Assembly: GCF_000342045.1 (NCBI RefSeq)
Contig: NZ_AONQ01000005.1
Location: 49,253 to 113,252 of the forward strand
Reading direction: 5' to 3'
Source: Paramagnetospirillum caucaseum
GTDB taxonomy: Bacteria > Pseudomonadota > Alphaproteobacteria > Rhodospirillales > Magnetospirillaceae
Length of the DNA stretch: 64,000 bases
Made by a program: the position numbers and the translations under genes. This document shows, one piece after another, positions 4,088-16,187 of this stretch. The stretch's first letter is position 1. Each line of letters opens with the position of its first letter. The notes beneath the pieces are model-generated. The model searched no databases and was not told the origin of the DNA. It saw only the letters and a list, made by a program, of their open reading frames with translations.

Positions 4088-4276
4088 ATGAAACGGATTG
4101 ACGACATTCAGGCCCTGTTGGCCGAACCGCCGCCCCTCGGCCATCCCGAGCGGGAGGGATGGAACCACGCGGTGGACCGGGATCTGTTCCCGGCCCTGCG
4201 GAGACTGGCCGCGCACCCGCACCCGCATGTGAGGGCGCAGGTGTGGCGGGCGGCGCAACGGTGGACGGAGGGATGA
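4088..4276 (+). CDS. Possible small protein, 62 residues
   Basis: A short plus-strand frame inside the gap between the Cro-like gene and the leftward operon. It encodes a charged, helical sequence (MKRIDDIQALLAE at the start, ending AQRWTEG) with protein-like composition. No clear ribosome site precedes the ATG, and its orientation opposes the genes on both sides, so it may not be expressed. No family is recognised. Confidence 0.35.
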   Translation: MKRIDDIQALLAEPPPLGHPEREGWNHAVDRDLFPALRRLAAHPHPHVRAQVWRAAQRWTEG

Positions 4277-4281
4277 GGCGC

Positions 4282-4581
4282 TCATGGAACACCTTCGGAA
4301 GAAGAGGCCCCGGCGGCGCCATGACGGCACCCATCCGGGGAGTTGACCGCCCCAGGCAGGGAGGAATCGGGGGCGGGGCGGGCGGCCAAGTGTGCAAAAA
4401 GGCTGAGGGTCACCCCCTCGAATCCTCGTCGCTCAGCAGCGGCAACCACGTCAAGCCAACGGCTGGCGGGGATGCTGTTGCGATTGCGCCAGGCACGGAC
4501 ATTGAGCCCGGTTTCCCCGATGTCGGCGGCGAGGGCGGTGGCGGTGCCCCACAGGGCGATGATGTCGGCAAAGGTTTTCAT
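4282..4581 (-). CDS. Cro-like helix-turn-helix repressor
   Basis: This 99-residue protein has a compact HTH in its first 60 residues: FADIIALWGTATALAADIG then LNVRAWRNRNSIPASRW, the form seen in phage Cro-type repressors. The tail is Pro/Ala-rich and probably disordered. The gene is divergent from the S24-type repressor at 4654. Its predicted promoter has a -10 at 4593-4588, so transcription would begin at about the A of the ATG (4581), implying a leaderless mRNA. It would start the leftward early operon and compete with the repressor for the 17-bp dyads. Confidence 0.75.
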   Translation of the reverse strand: MKTFADIIALWGTATALAADIGETGLNVRAWRNRNSIPASRWLDVVAAAERRGFEGVTLSLFAHLAARPAPDSSLPGAVNSPDGCRHGAAGASSSEGVP

Positions 4582-4587
4582 GGCGAT

Positions 4588-4630
4588 ACGATACGAAGCA
4601 TATCGCGCGAGGTCAATATGATTTGTATTG
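4588..4630 (-). promoter_or_regulatory. Leftward prophage promoter with two operator dyads (OL-like)
   Basis: On the minus strand TTGACC (4616-4611) and TATCGT (4593-4588) are 17 bp apart, a good sigma-70 promoter for the Cro-like gene. Two perfect dyads overlap it: CGATA-N7-TATCG at 4589-4605 and CAATA-N7-TATTG at 4614-4630, with starts 25 bp apart. The whole block is an inverted near-copy (about 36 of 42 bases) of 6111-6153. It also lies just upstream of the repressor, so it may control both directions. Confidence 0.8.
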
Positions 4631-4653
4631 CCGGAGCCGATACGATGTGTTGC

Positions 4654-5388
4654 ATGGATACGCCAGGAAACAGACTCCGCCATCTGAGGATCAAGGCCGG
4701 GTATGGAAGTGCTGCCGACTTTGCGCGTGCGCATGGAATCGAGGCAGTGACCTATCGAAAGCACGAATCGGGCGATAACGGGGTCCGGCCGGATGTTGCT
4801 GGCCGTTACGCGAAGATATTTGGGGTATCTGCATCATGGATACTGTATGGGGATGGCTCTGCGCCAGCCTCGATAATGCAGGCTAAAGGACAGGAAGAGC
4901 TCCCTTCAGTCTACGTGCCCCCTCCCCATGATGACGGCTTCGTGGCGCGCGCCATTCCAATCCCAACCCAGGCGCAAATGCCCCGCACTCTGCCGGTCTA
5001 CGGCTTAGCTCAGGGCGGTGATGATGGCGCGTTCGAGATGAATGGCTCCGTCCTCGATTACGTCGAAATGCCGCCGGCTCTGGCGGGGACAAAGAACCCG
5101 TATGGCGTCTATGTCTCAGGCGAATCCATGTCGCCTCGATATGAGCCCGGATGGCTGCTTCACGTCCACCCGCACAAGCCGGCCAGGCCGGGCGACAATG
5201 TTGTCGTCCAGATCAGGGCGAGAGACGAGCATTCCCCGCCGCTGGCCTATGTCAAGGTGTTGGTGTCAGACCATCATAAGAGCGGCGGAAAGCTGATCGT
5301 ACGCCAGTTTAACCCGGACAAAAAATTGGTATGGGAAGGACAGGAAGTGGTGAGCGTCCACAAGATCGTTGGAGTGGCTCACGAATGA
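4654..5388 (+). CDS. Prophage repressor, HTH plus S24/LexA-type peptidase
   Basis: This 244-residue protein has an N-terminal HTH (about residues 5-60, RLRHLRIKAGYGSAADFAR). The C-terminal LexA/S24 peptidase domain has the nucleophile Ser in YVSGESMSPRYEPGW and a probable catalytic Lys in AYVKVLVS. It should hold the element in lysogeny and self-cleave after DNA damage with RecA. A -10-like TACGAT at 4641-4646 with a poor -35 predicts a leaderless start at 4654, as for lambda cI from PRM, with the operator at 4614-4630 covering the -35 region. An in-frame ATG at 4645 is the alternative. Two operator pairs flank the gene. Confidence 0.85.
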   Translation: MDTPGNRLRHLRIKAGYGSAADFARAHGIEAVTYRKHESGDNGVRPDVAGRYAKIFGVSASWILYGDGSAPASIMQAKGQEELPSVYVPPPHDDGFVARAIPIPTQAQMPRTLPVYGLAQGGDDGAFEMNGSVLDYVEMPPALAGTKNPYGVYVSGESMSPRYEPGWLLHVHPHKPARPGDNVVVQIRARDEHSPPLAYVKVLVSDHHKSGGKLIVRQFNPDKKLVWEGQEVVSVHKIVGVAHE

Positions 5389-6035: not shown

Positions 6036-6110
6036 TGCCCCGAAAAATCCATAGCACCACCAATCTAAGTTCTTCGCGATGGATGGTCACATTTCTCTCG
6101 ACGATATGCG

Positions 6111-6153
6111 CGATACAAATAATATTGACCTCGAACGATATGTTTCGTATTGT
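6111..6153 (+). promoter_or_regulatory. Rightward prophage promoter with two operator dyads (OR-like)
   Basis: TTGACC (6125-6130) and TATTGT (6148-6153) are 17 bp apart. The dyad CGATA-N7-TATTG occurs at 6111-6127 and again at 6136-6152, exactly 25 bp apart, overlapping the -35 and -10. The block is an inverted near-copy of 4588-4630. It should drive the operon from 6253 rightward, including the DGR, under control of the S24 repressor and the Cro-like protein. About 90 nt of leader lie between the predicted start and the first gene. Confidence 0.8.
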
Positions 6154-6252
6154 GCCTCCCACGCACCCCACGGTGCTGCGGTCCTCCCCACCGCGCCCGC
6201 CGCCGATCCGACCCCGGTGGCGGGCACCTGGGAGGCAGGAAGGGAGAGCAGC

Positions 6253-6743: not shown

Positions 6744-7190
6744 ATGAGCAACATCGAGAGCCCCGAGCGCCGTCTTCCCGCCATCGGCGCGCCGTTTGGC
6801 GGCGGTTACTTCGTCGATACCGTCACCAACAACGGCCAGACCTACGCCCTGGTGGTGGCGCCGAAGTCGGAAGACGCGGGCGGCAAGACCTGGAAGCAGG
6901 CCCAGAAGCTGGCCGCGGCCTGCCGCGCCGGCGGCCACGAGGACTGGCAGCTTCCCAGCCGCCGCGATGCCCTGGCCATGGCGGAAAAGCTGCTGCCGAC
7001 CGGCAGCCAGACGCCGGAAGCCTTCCGCGAGGGTGGAGAGCAGGCCCTTGAGCGATCGTGGTACTGGACCGCCGCCGAGGTTGACGGCGAACCCGGCTAC
7101 GCCTGGCTGCAGTACTTCGGCTACGGCTGCCAGTCCAGCAGCAAGGGCCTCAGGGACCGGGTCCGAGCCGTCCGCAAACATCCCCTTTAA
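6744..7190 (+). CDS. DGR target protein 1, DUF1566/C-type-lectin-like variable protein
   Basis: This 148-residue protein has no signal peptide. The pattern W-x2-A-x2-LA...EDWQLPSRRD, then SWYWTAAEV and a final RVRAVR, matches the DUF1566 (Lcl C-terminal) type of C-type lectin-like domain used by DGRs for display. Residues 117-145 are encoded by the variable repeat (7093-7176). Residues 124, 126, 127, 129, 131-133, 135, 136 and 138 correspond to template AAC codons, and all ten differ from Asn. It probably binds a ligand through this varied surface. The ligand and the particle or cell that displays it are unknown. The homing hairpin lies 13 bp after the stop. Confidence 0.9.
   Translation: MSNIESPERRLPAIGAPFGGGYFVDTVTNNGQTYALVVAPKSEDAGGKTWKQAQKLAAACRAGGHEDWQLPSRRDALAMAEKLLPTGSQTPEAFREGGEQALERSWYWTAAEVDGEPGYAWLQYFGYGCQSSSKGLRDRVRAVRKHPL
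7093..7176 (+). repeat. DGR variable repeat VR1
   Basis: An 84-bp segment aligned without gaps to the template repeat at 10195-10278. It is identical over the first 20 and last 19 bases and differs at 16 positions of the 45-bp core, every one an adenine in the template. The identical GC-rich 3' end (7158-7176) is the expected initiation-of-mutagenic-homing segment. Confidence 0.93.
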
Positions 7191-7203
7191 CTCTCACCCC
7201 TTT

Positions 7204-7225
7204 CCCAGCCGCTTCGGCGGCTGGG
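7204..7225 (+). promoter_or_regulatory. DGR homing-site hairpin downstream of VR1
   Basis: A perfect 9-bp inverted repeat (7204-7212 with 7217-7225) closes a TTCG tetraloop, 28 bp after the end of VR1 and 13 bp after the target stop. Hairpins or cruciforms with a 4-nt loop just downstream of VR are known to promote retrohoming in characterised DGRs. No T-run follows, so a terminator role is less likely. A matching hairpin follows VR2. Confidence 0.8.
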
Positions 7226-7258
7226 GCTGATGTCAGAGGAAACGAGGACGAGACGGCA

Positions 7259-7573
7259 ATGACTACGGACAAGCCCGGAGCCGGGCACAACAGCGGCGAC
7301 GACGAGCAACAGACCACCCGGATCGGCGGCATCGCCGCCGAGGCGCTGCGGTCCTTCATCGAGCGCATCGAACGGCTGCATGAGGAAAAGAAGGCCTTGG
7401 AGGGCGACCTGAAGGACGTCTACGCCCAGTGCAAGTCCCAGGGATTCGACACCAAGATCATCAAGCGCCTGATCGCCTTGCGGCGCATCGACCCGCAAGC
7501 CCGCGAAGAGGGAGCCCAACTCCTCGCGCTCTATGCCGCCGCCATCGGCGAGCAATTGCCCCTCAACCTCTGA
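7259..7573 (+). CDS. GapR-family (DUF2312) nucleoid-associated protein
   Basis: This 104-residue protein matches DUF2312: an AGHNSGD motif near the N-terminus, then LRSFIERIERLHEEKKALEGD coiled coil, DVYAQCKSQGFDTKIIKRLIALR and an acidic C-terminal helix. The family includes GapR of Caulobacter, a tetrameric protein that binds overtwisted AT-rich DNA ahead of polymerases. Phage and prophage copies are common. Beside ssb, it probably acts in DNA handling during replication of the element. Confidence 0.85.
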   Translation: MTTDKPGAGHNSGDDEQQTTRIGGIAAEALRSFIERIERLHEEKKALEGDLKDVYAQCKSQGFDTKIIKRLIALRRIDPQAREEGAQLLALYAAAIGEQLPLNL

Positions 7574-7700
7574 CCGGATGCCGCGTCGGCCGGGCCAACG
7601 CACCTTGCCGTAGGAGTGACTACCCACGGTGCAAACCGCCCCCCCTCAAAGCCCATCACGGGCAACCCGGCCGACGCCGCTGCTTTTCGAAGGATCACCC

Positions 7701-8357
7701 ATGACCACCCAGATCACCCCTGCCAACACCGGAGCCCTGTTTCTGCAACAGGCGTCGGGCGGCATGTTCCGCCTGGACTCGCCGCTGATGGAATCGGTCC
7801 ACTGGCCAGACATCGCCGAATGTCTGGCCAAGGAACCGCGCTTCGCCGGGGCAACCCGCAATCTGGTGTTCAGCGTGGCACAGCATTGCGATCTTGTCGG
7901 CCGCATCGCCGAGGGCCTGGCCCGAAAGCGCCTGACCTGCGACGAGCAGATTCGCCGCGCCGCCCTGGCCGGGCACATCCACGACGCCCACGAATTCGCC
8001 ACCCGCGATATTCCGACGCCGACCAAGGACATGCTGGCCCGCCTGGCCGGCACCGACGTGGTCCGCCAGCTGCAAGCCCATATCGATGCCGCCCTTTATC
8101 CCGCCGCCGGCCTGCCCTGGCCCCTGCCGGCGACCCTGGCCGCCATCGTCGCCGAGGCCGACGCCATCGCCTGCGCCACCGAAAAACGCGACCTGATGGC
8201 CGAGCCCATCCTTCCCTGGGGTGGGCACCTTCCTGCAGCACTGCCCGAGCGCCTGACCCCCTGGCCGCCCCGCTTCGTCGAAATCATCGACCGCTGGTGG
8301 AGGCGCTTTCAGGTCCTGACCGGCGACCGCCCCACCACCACCATCGGAGCGCACTGA
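7701..8357 (+). CDS. HD-domain phosphohydrolase (YfbR-like), phage type
   Basis: This 218-residue protein has HD signatures: [12 protein letters not shown] provides the first His, [10 protein letters not shown] the HD pair, and a later EADAIA the distal Asp. Family members remove phosphate from nucleotides, and phages use them to adjust nucleotide pools. The ATG at 7701 has AAGGA upstream. The frame extends further 5' without support. Its stop is followed 1 bp later by ssb, so the two are probably coupled. Confidence 0.8.
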
Positions 8358-8358
8358 C

Positions 8359-8802
8359 ATGGCCGGTAGCGTCAACAAGGTCATTCTCGTCGGAAATCTG
8401 GGCCGCGATCCTGAGATTCGCACCGCCCAGAACGGCGACAAGGTCGTCAATCTGAACATCGCCACCTCCGAAACCTGGAAGGACCGGAGCACCGGCGAGC
8501 GCAAGGAAAAGACCGAGTGGCACCGGGTGGTGATCTTCAATCCCAATCTGGCCGATGTGGCCGAGCGATTCTTGCGCAAGGGCTCCAGCGTCTATGTTGA
8601 AGGCGCACTCCAGACTCGCAAGTGGACCGACCAGGCGGGCCAGGAAAAGTATACCACCGAGGTGGTGATCGGTCGCTTCAAGGGCGTCCTGACCCTGCTG
8701 GGCAAGGCCGAGGGCGGCCAACAGAGCGGGGGGAATGGCAGCAGCAACGGCGGACAATCCTGGGAGCCGCCCGCCGGCCTCGACGACGAAATCCCGTTCT
8801 AA
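8359..8802 (+). CDS. ssb: Single-stranded DNA-binding protein
   Basis: This 147-residue SSB has an OB fold at residues 1-110 ([40 protein letters not shown]), a Gly/Ser/Gln-rich linker, and the acidic tip DDEIPF that recruits partner proteins. It is about the normal length for a bacterial SSB. In the DGR-bearing operon it is the element's copy. It would coat single strands during replication and could also contact the cDNA made by the DGR, although that is only an idea. Confidence 0.95.
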
Positions 8803-8804
8803 AA

Positions 8805-9011
8805 ATGACCACCGGCCCCACCACCGTCACCATCCAGATCGAAAGCTGCCAGGGCTGCGATGCCCTGGTCACCGATCCGGTCTATCTCGCCACCTATGCC
8901 CGCTGCCGGGAAGCCGGAAGGCGGATCATCACCGCCTGGTGGGATCGCCGCACTCCGACACCTCCCTGGTGTCCCGCGAAATCGAACTCAGAGGAGAGCA
9001 ACCATGCCTGA
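8805..9011 (+). CDS. Hypothetical Cys-containing small protein
   Basis: This 68-residue protein starts 2 bp after the ssb stop and overlaps the second DGR target by 8 bp. It holds a CQGC pair and two more Cys, and ends in KSNSEESNHA. The spacing could bind a metal, but no family is recognised. Gene spacing supports translation. Confidence 0.5.
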   Translation: MTTGPTTVTIQIESCQGCDALVTDPVYLATYARCREAGRRIITAWWDRRTPTPPWCPAKSNSEESNHA

Positions 9012-9540
9012 TACCGCGCCCAACCCCGGGCTCACCATCCCCGTTCCCGCCATCGGCACCCCCATAGCCGGCGGTTTCTTCGGCGGCGTGTCCCGCGACG
9101 GCACGTGGATCATCGTGTCGCCCAAGGCCGAGGGCGAAACCGTCCTGGCCTGGAAGACCACCATGACCGCCAGCCCCGGCGCGCTGTCGTTCGTCGATGG
9201 CCTCGCCAACACCCGCGACATCGCCGACGCCGACCACCCGGCCGCCGCCTTCTGCGCCGCCCTGCGCATCGGCGGGTACGACGACTGGCACCTGGGCAGC
9301 CTCGACGACATGCAGACCCTGATGCGCAACCTGATGCCGCTGTCCGGCGGCAATCCCGCACAGACGGCGGTCGAGGCGTTCCAGGAGGGCGGCGCCGAGG
9401 CCTTCGAGGCGGCGTGGCACTGGACCAGCACCCAGGACAGCCCCGGCTACGCCTGGCTGCAGGACTTCGGCTACGGCCTCCAGTACTACACCAAGTACGA
9501 CAGACACCGGGTCCGAGCCGTCCGCAAATGTCTTCTTTAG
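9004..9540 (+). CDS. DGR target protein 2, DUF1566/C-type-lectin-like variable protein
   Basis: This 178-residue protein with no signal peptide has an extra N-terminal domain of about 60 residues, then the same lectin-like layout as target 1: GGYDDWHLGSLDDMQTL, AAWHWTSTQD and a terminal RVRAVR. Residues 147-175 come from VR2. Residues 154, 156, 157, 159, 161-163, 165, 166 and 168 sit at template AAC codons. It keeps Gly156 and Tyr157 in common with target 1. GAGGAGAG precedes the ATG. It is encoded directly upstream of the avd-TR-RT cassette, so it is probably the original target and target 1 a second one. Its ligand is unknown. Confidence 0.92.
   Translation: MPDTAPNPGLTIPVPAIGTPIAGGFFGGVSRDGTWIIVSPKAEGETVLAWKTTMTASPGALSFVDGLANTRDIADADHPAAAFCAALRIGGYDDWHLGSLDDMQTLMRNLMPLSGGNPAQTAVEAFQEGGAEAFEAAWHWTSTQDSPGYAWLQDFGYGLQYYTKYDRHRVRAVRKCLL
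9443..9526 (+). repeat. DGR variable repeat VR2
   Basis: An 84-bp segment aligned to the template at 10195-10278 without gaps. It has 12 differences, all at template adenines in the 45-bp core, and identical flanks of 20 bp (5') and 19 bp (3'). It differs from VR1 at most variable codons, so the two targets have been diversified independently. Confidence 0.94.
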
Positions 9541-9556
9541 CCCTTTAACCCTTTAT

Positions 9557-9576
9557 CCGGCCGCTTCGGCGGCCGG
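9557..9576 (+). promoter_or_regulatory. DGR homing-site hairpin downstream of VR2
   Basis: A perfect 8-bp stem (9557-9564 with 9569-9576) closes the same TTCG tetraloop as the VR1 hairpin, 30 bp after the end of VR2. The conserved loop, similar spacing (28 and 30 bp) and different stem sequences argue for a shared structural role in target recognition. Confidence 0.8.
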
Positions 9577-9599
9577 GTGATGCCTGGAGGAGGTTTTGC

Positions 9600-9953
9600 A
9601 TGGCGCTGGCCACCGAACTGCCCATCTACCGCGAGACATACGCCCTGGTCCAGCTTCTGGCGAAGCTGACGGGACAGTATCCCCGCAACTACCGGCAGGT
9701 TCTGGCCCGCGAGATCCTGACCGAGGGCCAGCAGATGGCGGTGGAGATCTTCCGCGCCAACTGCGTCACCGGCCCCGCCAAGGCGCCGCACATCGAGAGG
9801 ATGCGCGAACACCTGGAGGTGCTGCGCTTGCAGCTGCGCCTGTCCAAGGACCTTCACCTGATCTCCCCCAAGCAATTCGGGGACACGGTGGAACTGACGA
9901 CCGCCGTCGGCAAGCAGGCGACGGCATGGCTGAAATACGCGAGGAGCGCCTGA
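9600..9953 (+). CDS. avd: DGR accessory variability determinant (Avd)
   Basis: This 117-residue, basic, all-helical protein begins MALATELPIYRETYALVQLL and includes GQYPRNYRQVLAREI. It resembles the Avd/S23-like four-helix bundle that forms a pentameric barrel and binds the DGR reverse transcriptase and template RNA. Avd is required for adenine mutagenesis in the model phage system. GGAGGAGG precedes the ATG. Position between target 2 and the template matches the common target-avd-TR-RT order. Confidence 0.9.
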   Translation: MALATELPIYRETYALVQLLAKLTGQYPRNYRQVLAREILTEGQQMAVEIFRANCVTGPAKAPHIERMREHLEVLRLQLRLSKDLHLISPKQFGDTVELTTAVGKQATAWLKYARSA

Positions 9954-10279
9954 TGCCCGAAGGTCAAGGCCTTCGCGCCCGTGCGCATCATTTGGTCGGG
10001 GTAGCGGCCCCTCCCGATGCATACGGGGTCGCTCCAGGCGCCGATGGGATACGGCGGGTGCTCCCCCGCGCGTCCCGGCGCAGCTCGGCCGGCGTCGATG
10101 ACCCGGCGGCGAAGGCCGCCAGCCCGATGGATTGGACGCCTGCGCGTCCGGGTCAATCGCCGGCCCGGCCTGTACACCCCCGACAGGACTTGGTCCGGCT
10201 ACGCCTGGCTGCAGAACTTCAACAACGGCAACCAGAACAACAACAAGAACAACAGAAACCGGGTCCGAGCCGTCCGCAC
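9954..10279 (+). ncRNA. DGR template RNA region (avd-TR spacer and template)
   Basis: The 326-bp gap between avd and the reverse transcriptase gene. It is expected to give the structured template RNA with the TR at its 3' part. A hairpin GGACGC-CTGC-GCGTCC lies at 10134-10149. An 88-codon frame crosses the region, but it has no supporting features and reads through the template, so it is probably not a gene. The 5' and 3' ends of the RNA cannot be fixed from sequence. Confidence 0.7.
10195..10278 (+). repeat. DGR template repeat (TR)
   Basis: The 84-bp template copied into VR1 and VR2. Its 45-bp core (10215-10259) holds ten AAC codons plus CAG, AAG and AGA, giving 25 adenines. Adenine mutagenesis turns AAC into NNC, which can give 15 amino acids and no stop. 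It ends 2 bp before the reverse transcriptase ATG, so almost no spacer remains between TR and RT. Confidence 0.95.
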
Positions 10280-11407
10280 ATGATCACGCAACAGCCGTCA
10301 GACATCACCGTGTCCCAGCTTTTCGAGGCCTATTACGACTGCCGGCGCCACAAGCGCAACACGGCCTCCGCCCTGGAATTCGAGATGGCGCTGGAAAACA
10401 ACCTGATGGACCTGCTGGCCGAGCTGCAGGCCGGCACCTGGATGCCGGGACCGGCGACCGTCTTCGCCATCACCCGGCCCCGCCCGCGCGAGGTGTGGGC
10501 CGCCCAGTTCCGCGACCGCATCGTCCACCACCTGGTCTACCGCGCCGTCAACCCGCTGTTCGAGCCGGCGTTCATCGCCGATTCCTGCGCCTGCATCAAG
10601 GGGCGCGGCACGCTGTACGGCGCCGAGCGCCTGCACCGCCACCTACGCTCGGCCACCGAGAACTGGAGCAAGCCGGCCTTCTATCTGAAAGCCGACATCG
10701 CCAATTTCTTCGGATCGATCCGGCACGCCGATCTGTTCGCCATGCTGGCCCGGAGGATCACCGACCCCACCATGCTCGATCTGTGCCGCAAGCTGGTGTT
10801 CCAGGACGTGCGCCAGGGCGCCATCGTCAAGGACGGCGCCGGAACCCTGGCCCTGGTGCCGCCGCACAAAAGCCTGTTTCAGGTCCCGCCCGGCATCGGC
10901 CTGCCCATCGGCAACCTCAGCAGCCAATTCTTCGCCAACGTCTACCTGGACGGCTTGGATCAGACGATCAAGCGCCGCCTCGGCATGCGCCACTACGTCC
11001 GCTATGTCGACGACATGGTGATGATCCACCCCGAGCCCAAGGCGCTGCTGGCCGCCGCCGATGCCATCCGGGACCACCTGGCCGGAATCGGCCTGAAGCT
11101 GGCCGAGCACAAGACCTTCGTGGCGCCGGTCGCCAAGGGCGTCGATTTCGTCGGCCACGTCATCCGCCCGCACCGCCGCCAGGGCCGCCCCAGAACCCAC
11201 CGCGCAGCCCTGCGCCGGCTGATGGAGATCCCGGCCGAGGACTTCATGCCGTCCTGCAACAGCTATCTCGGCCTGTTCCGCCACGGCGGCAGCCGCAACC
11301 AGATCATCGCACTCGCCCGGATCGCTCTGCGGCGCCGCCACTGGGTAGCCGCCGACCTGACCAAGGTGGGCGGCCGGCGCATCCACACACCGAGGACATC
11401 ATCATGA
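10280..11407 (+). CDS. DGR reverse transcriptase
   Basis: This 375-residue reverse transcriptase copies the template RNA with adenine-directed errors. It has the catalytic Asp in YLKADIANFF (Asp139) and the active-site YVDD at 242-245. The IGNLSSQ motif at 210-216 matches the IGxxxSQ signature of DGR enzymes rather than the QGxxxSP of group II introns. It has no maturase or endonuclease domain. The start at 10280 was chosen because the TR ends at 10278. The frame is open further upstream through the TR, but that part is not protein-like. Its stop overlaps the next ATG. Confidence 0.95.
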   Translation: MITQQPSDITVSQLFEAYYDCRRHKRNTASALEFEMALENNLMDLLAELQAGTWMPGPATVFAITRPRPREVWAAQFRDRIVHHLVYRAVNPLFEPAFIADSCACIKGRGTLYGAERLHRHLRSATENWSKPAFYLKADIANFFGSIRHADLFAMLARRITDPTMLDLCRKLVFQDVRQGAIVKDGAGTLALVPPHKSLFQVPPGIGLPIGNLSSQFFANVYLDGLDQTIKRRLGMRHYVRYVDDMVMIHPEPKALLAAADAIRDHLAGIGLKLAEHKTFVAPVAKGVDFVGHVIRPHRRQGRPRTHRAALRRLMEIPAEDFMPSCNSYLGLFRHGGSRNQIIALARIALRRRHWVAADLTKVGGRRIHTPRTSS

Positions 11408-14953: not shown

Positions 14954-15183
14954 CGGCCACTCTGACCATCACCGAGGCGGCCGAATATCTCGGCCTGACG
15001 GCGACGCAATTCCGCCGCGCCGTTGCTCGGCGTGAAATGCCGGAGCCGTTGATCAAGTCAAGGCCGCAGCGGTGGTCAAAGGTCCAGATCGATTGGGCAC
15101 TTGAAGGCCGTCTCGAGAAAAGCGCACCATGCCGGGAAATCGACCCGATCATGGAGCACCTCGAACAATGCGGTTCGAGATGA
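14950..15183 (+). CDS. Excisionase/AlpA-like helix-turn-helix protein
   Basis: This 77-residue protein with a MerR-type winged HTH: LTITEAAEYLGLTATQFRRA, then EPLIKSRPQRWSKVQIDWAL. This is the layout of AlpA and phage excisionases. It lies immediately upstream of the integrase and overlaps its ATG by 4 bp, so it is probably the recombination directionality factor. It could also be a transcriptional activator of the integrase. Confidence 0.75.
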   Translation: MTATLTITEAAEYLGLTATQFRRAVARREMPEPLIKSRPQRWSKVQIDWALEGRLEKSAPCREIDPIMEHLEQCGSR

Positions 15184-16187
15184 AATACATCACAGAAACC
15201 AAGCCTGGGCACTTTTATTACCGCCGTAGCGGGCGGTATTGGGGCCGCTTGCCCGGTGTTCCTGGATCGGTCGAGTTTGCAACCGAATACGCCCGTCTCA
15301 ATGCCAGTTTCGACGCGCCCAGCAAGGCGCCTGTGGTCCCCGGCACTTTCGATGCTGTCGTCACGGCCTACCTGAGGAGCGGGGAGTACCGGAAGAACCT
15401 GAAAGAGAAGACCAGGGAGGCCTATCGCTACGACCTCGATATTCTCCGCAAGAGGTTCGGAAAATTCCGAATCGATGATATCGAGATAAAGCACGTCCTC
15501 AAGATGAGGGATTACTTCGCCGACAAGCCGGGCAAGGCCAATACCCTGGTCCGCACCATGCGCGTGGTGTTTGGCTGGGCCATCGGCCGAGGCATGGCCA
15601 AGCGCAACCCGGCCGACCTGAAAAGCGTCAACGTCAAACAATTGAAGACCGGCGCCCACAAGCCTTGGCCACCGGCTGCGCTGGTCAAGTTCCGCGCCGA
15701 GGCGCCGGCGCATCTGGTGCTCGCCATGGAACTCGGCCTTGCCACCGGACAGCGCCAGGGCGACTTGATCCGCCTCCGCTGGGATGACATCGATTCCGGC
15801 GTGATTCACGTCATCCAGGAGAAGACGGGCAAGGAGCTGTGGCTCCCCGTGTCAAAGGCGCTGGCCGCCGCCCTGGAGAAGTCGCCCAAGAGCGCGGTGA
15901 CCATCCTCGTCAACAGCCGGGGGACGCCCTGGCACCGGGCGAATCCGCTGGCTCAGGCGTTCGGCGATGAGATGAAACGACTCGGGCTGGACGGCCTGGT
16001 ATTCCACGGTCTACGAAAGACTGCCGCTGTCGCCTTGGCGGATGTGGGATGCTCGACCAAGCAGATTGCCGCCGTCACCGGACAGTCAGATCAGATGGTC
16101 GAGCATTACACCAAAGGGGCGGACCAGAAGCGGCTGGCGAAGGCCGCCGTGGTCAAGCTGGAACGAAGCCAGAAGGGAAAGTGCTAA
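15180..16187 (+). CDS. int: Tyrosine-type phage integrase
   Basis: This 335-residue integrase has an N-terminal arm-binding region, a core-binding SAM-like domain (about 60-150) and a catalytic domain. Catalytic residues visible are Arg in ATGQRQGDLIRL, Lys in VIQEKTGKE, His-x-x-Arg in FHGLRKTAA and Tyr in VEHYTKGA. The usual His of the LGH motif is Gln (TGQSD), a tolerated change in this family. It is the last gene of the element and ends 50 bp before the accC stop, which places the attachment site in this gap or in the accC 3' end. Confidence 0.92.
   Translation: MKYITETKPGHFYYRRSGRYWGRLPGVPGSVEFATEYARLNASFDAPSKAPVVPGTFDAVVTAYLRSGEYRKNLKEKTREAYRYDLDILRKRFGKFRIDDIEIKHVLKMRDYFADKPGKANTLVRTMRVVFGWAIGRGMAKRNPADLKSVNVKQLKTGAHKPWPPAALVKFRAEAPAHLVLAMELGLATGQRQGDLIRLRWDDIDSGVIHVIQEKTGKELWLPVSKALAAALEKSPKSAVTILVNSRGTPWHRANPLAQAFGDEMKRLGLDGLVFHGLRKTAAVALADVGCSTKQIAAVTGQSDQMVEHYTKGADQKRLAKAAVVKLERSQKGKC

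What the first reader, a model, noticed from the sequence alone, without database searches (positions are those of the whole stretch)
6744..11407. Complete diversity-generating retroelement with two separate target genes
One template repeat (10195-10278) matches two variable repeats (7093-7176 and 9443-9526). All 28 differences (16 in VR1, 12 in VR2) fall on template adenines within a 45-bp core, and none at the other 59 or so bases. An Avd gene and a DGR-class reverse transcriptase (IGNLSSQ, YVDD) complete the system. The adenine bias shows that it has been active. Two unlike target proteins share one template, and one target lies about 2 kb away with ssb, gapR and an HD gene in between.
Basis: partly seen in the sequence, partly recalled or inferred. 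Interest (0 to 1): 0.95.

Follow-up and report, generated by a model that had tools for sequence, protein, structure and literature searches.

The report
Prophage hypermutation cassette with twin targets
A prophage in a relative of Magnetospirillum carries a retroelement whose template differs from the ends of two sister genes only at adenines, so it has likely rewritten both genes with random changes; its relatives usually share this paired layout, and where mapped they mostly lie among early phage genes, which suggests that these proteins would act inside the cell rather than on the phage tail.

Summary
In detail: one template repeat, two variable repeats, avd and a DGR-type reverse transcriptase, with 28 of 28 differences on template adenines. 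The cassette is a known kind: a 2012 survey lists two DGRs with two VRs each in M. magneticum AMB-1. The two targets are not unlike; they are paralogs (37% identity, both Lcl_C).

(1) Several short targets mark one branch of the RT tree: 64 of 67 called loci inside it have two or more, 0 of 19 outside. (2) In five of the loci mapped, this DGR lies between repressor and integrase on one strand, away from the tail genes; one locus differs and two are incomplete. (3) The orphan Rfam family RT-15 sits at the 5' edge of the template in 29 of 29 measurable loci, so it is probably the leader of the template RNA; BPP-1 has its structured spacer on the other side. (4) The window's proximal target is a hybrid joined inside the VR, and a one-codon deletion in the template is shared by both VRs.

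Activity, RNA function and an intracellular role of the targets are inferred, not shown.

The parts
4654..5388 (+). CI-like repressor (HTH + S24 peptidase); start inferred inside ORF 4159-5388
   Evidence: phrog_4 transcriptional repressor 2e-29; PF00717 Peptidase_S24 1.9e-7
6744..7190 (+). target gene 1 (distal), 148 aa, Lcl_C (C-type-lectin-like) protein
   Evidence: PF07603 8e-11; AlphaFold2 pLDDT 90.8; groups with distal targets of L032, L005, L006 (96*)
7093..7176 (+). variable repeat 1
   Evidence: 16 of 16 differences on TR adenines
7204..7225 (+). post-VR hairpin, 9-bp stem, TTCG loop
7259..7573 (+). gapR-like gene between the targets
   Evidence: PF10073 1.3e-28
7701..8357 (+). HD-type nucleotidase-like gene
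   Evidence: phrog_318 7e-34; Pfam YfbR-like below cut-off
8359..8802 (+). ssb
   Evidence: PF00436 1.1e-36
9004..9540 (+). target gene 2 (proximal), 178 aa, Lcl_C protein; hybrid of two ancestral targets joined within the VR
   Evidence: PF07603 3e-10; segment identities; AlphaFold2 pLDDT 92.4
9443..9526 (+). variable repeat 2
   Evidence: 12 of 12 differences on TR adenines
9557..9576 (+). post-VR hairpin, 8-bp stem, TTCG loop
9600..9953 (+). avd
   Evidence: phrog_3206 2.7e-26; PF22296 above cut-off; NCBIfam Avd 53.2 bits, below cut-off 80
9944..10113 (+). RT-15 RNA (RF03018), likely 5' leader of the template RNA; by alignment to L035 the leader probably runs on to about 10194, with about 45 extra bases near 10110-10160
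   Evidence: 77.7 bits against gathering score 82, E 3.6e-17; alignment
10195..10278 (+). template repeat
10280..11407 (+). DGR reverse transcriptase, 375 aa
   Evidence: phrog_1423 9e-105; best PDB sequence hit 8ub7 'Reverse transcriptase' 1e-40; RT trees
15129..16187 (+). tyrosine integrase
   Evidence: PF00589 1.7e-17

Best explanation
This is a diversity-generating retroelement in a prophage: one template repeat, an avd gene and a reverse transcriptase gene, with two paralogous lectin-fold genes whose 3' ends match the template except at adenines; the transcriptase is predicted to copy the template RNA with errors at adenines, and the cDNA likely replaces the variable ends of both genes. 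SHOWN by sequence: adenine-only differences in both targets; VR differences between strains almost only at adenine sites; a template codon deletion shared by both VRs; a target hybrid joined inside the VR; a structured RNA family (RT-15) between avd and the template; repressor and integrase on either side on the same strand, with the tail genes elsewhere on the other strand. INFERRED: RT-15 is part of the template RNA and takes the place of BPP-1's 3' spacer; the targets are expressed with early or lysogenic genes and act inside the cell as diversified binding proteins, for example against host defences or rival phages.
For: Adenine-only differences 28 of 28. In six VR comparisons, five of them between strains, adenine sites differ at 7-11 of 22 and other sites at 0 of 50 in four and 1 of 50 in the two that use L035's proximal VR. 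The window's TR has 3 AAC codons in a run where 9 distinct related loci have 4 and one has 3; both window VRs have 3. VR crossover: target 2 is 112/112 and 110/112 identical to the DISTAL target of L029 and L035 just before the VR, but 59/60 to the PROXIMAL one after it. RT-15 over its gathering score in 30 of 32 branch loci given, 3' end within -4 to +8 nt of the TR start in 29 of 29 measurable; 0 of 21 other loci. Over 60 genomes RT-15 occurs in 6 (8 places), the same 8 places as the branch's RT. RT-15 consensus: 26 of 40 pairs have two-sided changes. Context: repressor-DGR-integrase on one strand in the window, Magia, Cruim01, Haboob and L014; window tail and head genes lie 2.8 to 21 kb left of the window's first base on the other strand.
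Against: No activity was measured. In L027 the integrase found is on the opposite strand, and in L020 none of the 4 flanking proteins tested was an integrase or a repressor. Gene position does not prove place of action; early-region proteins can enter virions. BFVD fold matches of target 2 include a named tail fibre protein and a virion structural protein. RT-15 in the window is below Rfam's gathering score, as it is in L005 (no match; 70.1 bits for the same locus in G021), and the L035 leader folds no better than shuffles (z -0.57). L035's proximal VR has one non-adenine change from its own TR (17 differences, 16 at adenines).
Confidence: 0.8

Rival explanations
1. The targets are virion parts: two small receptor-binding tips, and the DGR serves host-range switching as in BPP-1.
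For: Phage DGR targets of Roux clades 1, 4 and 6 are mostly annotated as tail proteins (PMC8144416); some BFVD fold matches are tail or virion proteins; two-target phage DGRs with C-lectin targets have been read as receptor binders (PMC10743442 passages).
Against: In five mapped loci the targets lie between repressor and integrase, and in the window the tail genes are on the opposite strand; median ORF length 175 aa (n=109) against 353 to 998 aa in 17 of 23 single-target loci; top-25 Pfam lists of neighbours show integrase and repressor for twin loci, tail sheath, baseplate and tail proteins for single-target loci.
Confidence: 0.25
2. The element is decayed: past activity left the adenine pattern but the RT no longer works.
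For: Some relatives have VRs whose AAC-run length no longer matches the TR (L029, L118, L005, L032), so long pauses occur.
Against: RT open over 375 aa with YVDD, 93-95% identical to three relatives; in the window both VRs match the TR's derived run length and carry no non-adenine change.
Confidence: 0.12
3. VR differences arise by ordinary recombination among target genes, with adenine bias left from old events.
For: One crossover inside the VR is clear.
Against: VRs in strains with near-identical flanks differ at 7-11 of 22 adenine sites and at 0-1 of 50 others, and the genome holds only three copies to recombine.
Confidence: 0.05

Closest known systems
DGRs of Magnetospirillum magneticum AMB-1 (DiGReF Table 2, GI 83310593 and 83309559, two VRs each; PMC3521204)
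   Same: Two VRs per RT. The locus taken as AMB-1 (L035; G009, a 4,967,148-bp contig) has an RT 95% identical to the window's, and the same genome has a second DGR (L118) at 78%.
   Different: In L035 the two targets are adjacent; in the window the proximal target is a hybrid and the other lies beyond gapR, HD and ssb.
BPP-1 type phage DGR (mtd-avd-TR-brt)
   Same: avd-TR-RT order, adenine errors, VR in a C-lectin-type target; hairpin after the VR (recalled for BPP-1).
   Different: Its target is a tail protein; a structured spacer lies between TR and RT (PMC12875486 passage), where the window has 1 nt; here RT-15 lies between avd and TR.
Two-target gut phage DGRs nd4 and nd12 with tentaclins (PMC10743442 passages)
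   Same: One TR serves two C-lectin targets in a phage.
   Different: Those targets have no sequence similarity to each other and one VR is near the 5' end; here the targets are paralogs with C-terminal VRs.
Burkholderia phage Magia DGR (MT701587, PMC7883833)
   Same: Same RT branch (about 52% identity; tree), repressor-targets-avd-RT-integrase order, RT-15, three VRs; its record marks two genes as possible DGR targets.
   Different: One target lies about 7 kb from the TR, near the repressor.

Membership tests
diversity-generating retroelement | TR and VR differing almost only at TR adenines | tested here: met
   28 of 28
diversity-generating retroelement | DGR-lineage reverse transcriptase | tested here: met
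diversity-generating retroelement | Avd accessory protein | tested here: met
   phrog_3206 and Pfam bAvd above cut-off; NCBIfam below its cut-off
diversity-generating retroelement | C-type-lectin-fold target with C-terminal VR | tested here: met
   PF07603; target 2 model matches 8q4e, Legionella Lcl C-terminal domain, E 1.6e-4; target 1 was modelled but not fold-searched
diversity-generating retroelement | RT-dependent mutagenic retrohoming | not testable with these tools
   needs culture
BPP-1 type DGR RNA | structured spacer between TR and RT gene | tested here: not met
   1 nt between TR and RT start. Reduced third-base change is confined to about the first 20 RT codons, and avd also varies along its length, so a short element inside the RT gene is not excluded
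RT-15 RNA (RF03018) | score at or above the gathering score | tested here: inconclusive
   window 77.7 against 82; close relatives L035, L006, L029, L004 90.7 to 105.6
tail-fibre-diversifying phage DGR | target in or beside the tail module | tested here: not met

The most novel reading that the evidence does not exclude
A whole branch of temperate-phage DGRs does not serve receptor switching: it diversifies pairs of small lectin-fold proteins made inside the cell with the early or lysogenic genes, a phage-borne hypermutating recognition system, and it uses the orphan RNA RT-15 as a 5' guide for its template in place of the 3' spacer of BPP-1.
Probability: 0.4. Interest if true: 0.88.

Novelty: new variant of a known kind. 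Interest (0 to 1): 0.62.

Why it matters
If right, phage DGRs split into two trades: long single tail targets, and short paired targets in the early region that would meet intracellular partners. It would give the orphan RT-15 RNA a job and a testable alternative to the BPP-1 priming spacer. The AAC-run length works as a natural tracer of template-to-target copying, and the crossover shows that VRs also serve as joints that shuffle target bodies.

Tried and rejected
Unlike targets: rejected, they are paralogs. More VRs in the genome: none found. Hidden 3' spacer inside the RT gene: third-base change is low only in RT codons 1-20 (6/57 and 10/57, against 0.19 to 0.62 in later bins), and avd shows uneven change too; a first version with nearest-ATG starts exaggerated the effect and is set aside. 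Single-sequence folding of the L035 leader gave no signal. PDB sequence search of target 2 gave only weak matches to TAL-effector repeats (E 0.0045 or worse), of avd none. Secreted targets: 6 of 134 short-target ORFs have a hydrophobic 17-residue stretch, several in overlong ORFs; no signal-peptide program was run. The first target tree had rows in the wrong frame and was replaced. One search's repeat caller was replaced. The VR comparison left out one codon that holds L035's non-adenine change; one search includes it. L027, counted as single-target, has a second target-like ORF (phrog_4245) without a called VR.

Literature: full-text searches for RT-15 and for DGRs with early, lysogeny, superinfection or DUF1566 terms showed no paper making these links in the listings of the held library. 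The 2018 NAR survey (PMC5758913) is not held, and the paper that I recall as describing the RT-n RNAs (2017) was not looked up, so priority is unknown.
Full report
OBSERVATION. The repeats, their coordinates and the adenine rule hold: VR1 16 and VR2 12 differences, 28 of 28 on the 29 adenines of the 84-base TR (chance 1e-9 and 5e-7). The TR finds three places in the own genome, itself and the two VRs. Ten amino acids differ from the template-encoded ones in each target (in target 1 an eleventh changed codon is silent), and the template could in theory encode about 2e15 variants. The RT has 375 aa; the avd call is good by PHROGs and Pfam, below NCBIfam's cut-off. Both targets are Lcl_C proteins and paralogs. 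AlphaFold2 models have pLDDT 92.4 (target 2) and 90.8 (target 1); target 2's best PDB fold match is the Legionella Lcl C-terminal domain.

KNOWN KIND. DiGReF (PMC3521204; passages and section 14 read) lists two DGRs with two VRs each in M. magneticum AMB-1. RT relatives: 95% in G009 and G016, 93% in G012; a second copy at 78% in G009 and in G012. In the genus 4 of 17 genomes, the window's own included, have the RT; of all 60 searched, 7.

A TWIN-TARGET BRANCH. I called TR/VR pairs in 98 loci (window plus 97); 82 have VRs. Of 76 loci with at least 2.5 kb before the RT, 73 have VRs: 46 two, 18 one, 8 three, 1 four. A first RT tree held 82 rows, 16 loci being dropped by my length and stop filter: a branch of 62 rows (95/87) held 51 several-target rows, 3 single, 8 uncalled; outside were 14 single and 6 uncalled. 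A second, quick tree held 101 rows (95 of the 98 loci, plus L118, L120 and four named phages; L093, L095, L098 dropped): a branch of 75 rows (SH-aLRT 95) holds all 64 several-target rows, 3 single, 8 uncalled; the 26 rows outside have 19 single and 7 uncalled. Near-copies are included, and some outside rows sit on long branches. Several-target ORFs have a median of 175 aa (n=109). Magia, Cruim01, QDWS and Haboob, all in the branch, have 3, 3, 2 and 2 VRs, all adenine-only. In two-target loci (10 near-copies left out by name) the distal and proximal bodies, without the VR, are old paralogs that mostly keep their order: 11 label changes on the tree against 28.4 when shuffled, 0 of 500 as low (quick tree, 84 rows).

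HISTORY OF THE WINDOW'S TARGETS. Target 2's body matches the DISTAL target of L035 and L029 (306/327 and 310/327; the next 112 bases 110 and 112 identical) while its downstream side matches their PROXIMAL target (59/60 both; 35-36/60 to the distal). So a tandem pair collapsed by a crossover in the VR. Target 1 groups with the distal targets of L032, L005 and L006 and has no close relative in the set: 43% in the best tblastn match, up to 49% by alignment columns.

A TRACER OF COPYING. A run of AAC codons in the TR has 3 codons in the window and in L118, and 4 in nine other distinct loci; window VRs have 3 and 3. L035, L004, L030, L120 and the readable VR of L006 match their TR; L029 (4 against 5,5), L118 (3 against 4,4), L005 (4 against 4,5) and L032 (4 against 3,4) do not fully. 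The simplest reading is that the window's TR lost a codon and both VRs, one of them 3 kb away, were rewritten afterwards; other strains show VRs not rewritten since. Outside the run, over 24 codons, six VR comparisons (five between strains) differ at 7-11 of 22 adenine sites and at 0, 0, 0, 1, 1 and 0 of 50 others; the single exceptions both come from L035's proximal VR.

RNA. RT-15 (RF03018) lies between avd and TR: window 77.7 bits, under the gathering score of 82, perhaps because of about 45 extra bases. Over the gathering score: 8 of 8 branch loci, 17 of 18 (the miss, L040, has 143 bases before the RT) and 5 of 6 (the miss, L005, scores 70.1 as G021); 0 of 3 and 0 of 18 other loci (three of these 21 have under 400 bases before the RT). 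I gave these calls only part of the loci. The RNA's 3' end is within -4 to +8 nt of the TR start in 29 of 29 with a called TR. Among 60 genomes RT-15 is found in 6 (4 of them over the cut-off), in 8 places, all beside the branch's RT, and in 0 of 14 control genomes; the seventh RT genome (G036, 39% identity) has none. The 25-sequence alignment gives 40 pairs, 26 with two-sided changes. In BPP-1 the structured spacer is on the 3' side of the TR (PMC12875486, one passage). RT-18 occupies that 3' position in L100.

CONTEXT AND ROLE. The window's repressor, both targets, avd, RT and integrase are all on +; tail fibre, tape measure, major tail, head, terminase and minor tail genes lie on - at C5 27.9-46.5 kb, left of the window. 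The same repressor-DGR-integrase order on one strand is in Magia, Cruim01, Haboob and L014; QDWS shows the integrase side only; L027 has its integrase on the other strand and L020 was inconclusive. Neighbour tallies: twin loci, 149 ORFs from 11 of 18 loci chosen: integrase 8, Avd 7, S24 repressor 3, no tail family among the 25 of 82 families shown (PHROGs, 25 of 112 shown, alike); single-target loci, 113 ORFs from 12 loci: sheath, baseplate J, GpU, Tail_P2_I 4 each, no integrase among 25 of 35 shown. Hidden rows could hold exceptions. Roux et al. (PMC8144416; abstract, passages and section 3 part 2 read) assign viral targets of clades 1, 4 and 6 mostly to tails. I infer that this branch's targets work inside the cell; this is the least certain step.

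Noticed in passing
L118 (G009 C1:489000-502000): A second DGR in the same genome, RT 78% identical; its TR run has 3 AAC codons while both VRs have 4.
   Followed up: partly
L100:6219-6301: Another orphan Rfam family, RT-18, lies between TR (6074-6184) and RT (6441) in a DGR outside the branch, the position of BPP-1's spacer.
   Followed up: no
window 7259-7573: A gapR-like gene sits between the targets; one BFVD fold match of target 2 is a 571-aa phage protein named 'Nucleoid-associated protein', a hint of a link between the two domain types.
   Followed up: no
L008, L012: About 1 kb of extra DNA separates TR from RT in these loci; not identified.
   Followed up: no
L060: Four VRs spread over about 6 kb for one TR, all adenine-only.
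   Followed up: no
after VRs in related loci: A perfect hairpin (stem 7 or more) lies within 70 bases after 50 of 151 VRs against 4 of 151 random stretches.
   Followed up: partly
OK094664 and OP650936: Phage records from Shewanella and from a Tenericutes host have the same length (47,902) and the same RT match; possibly one phage deposited under two hosts.
   Followed up: no
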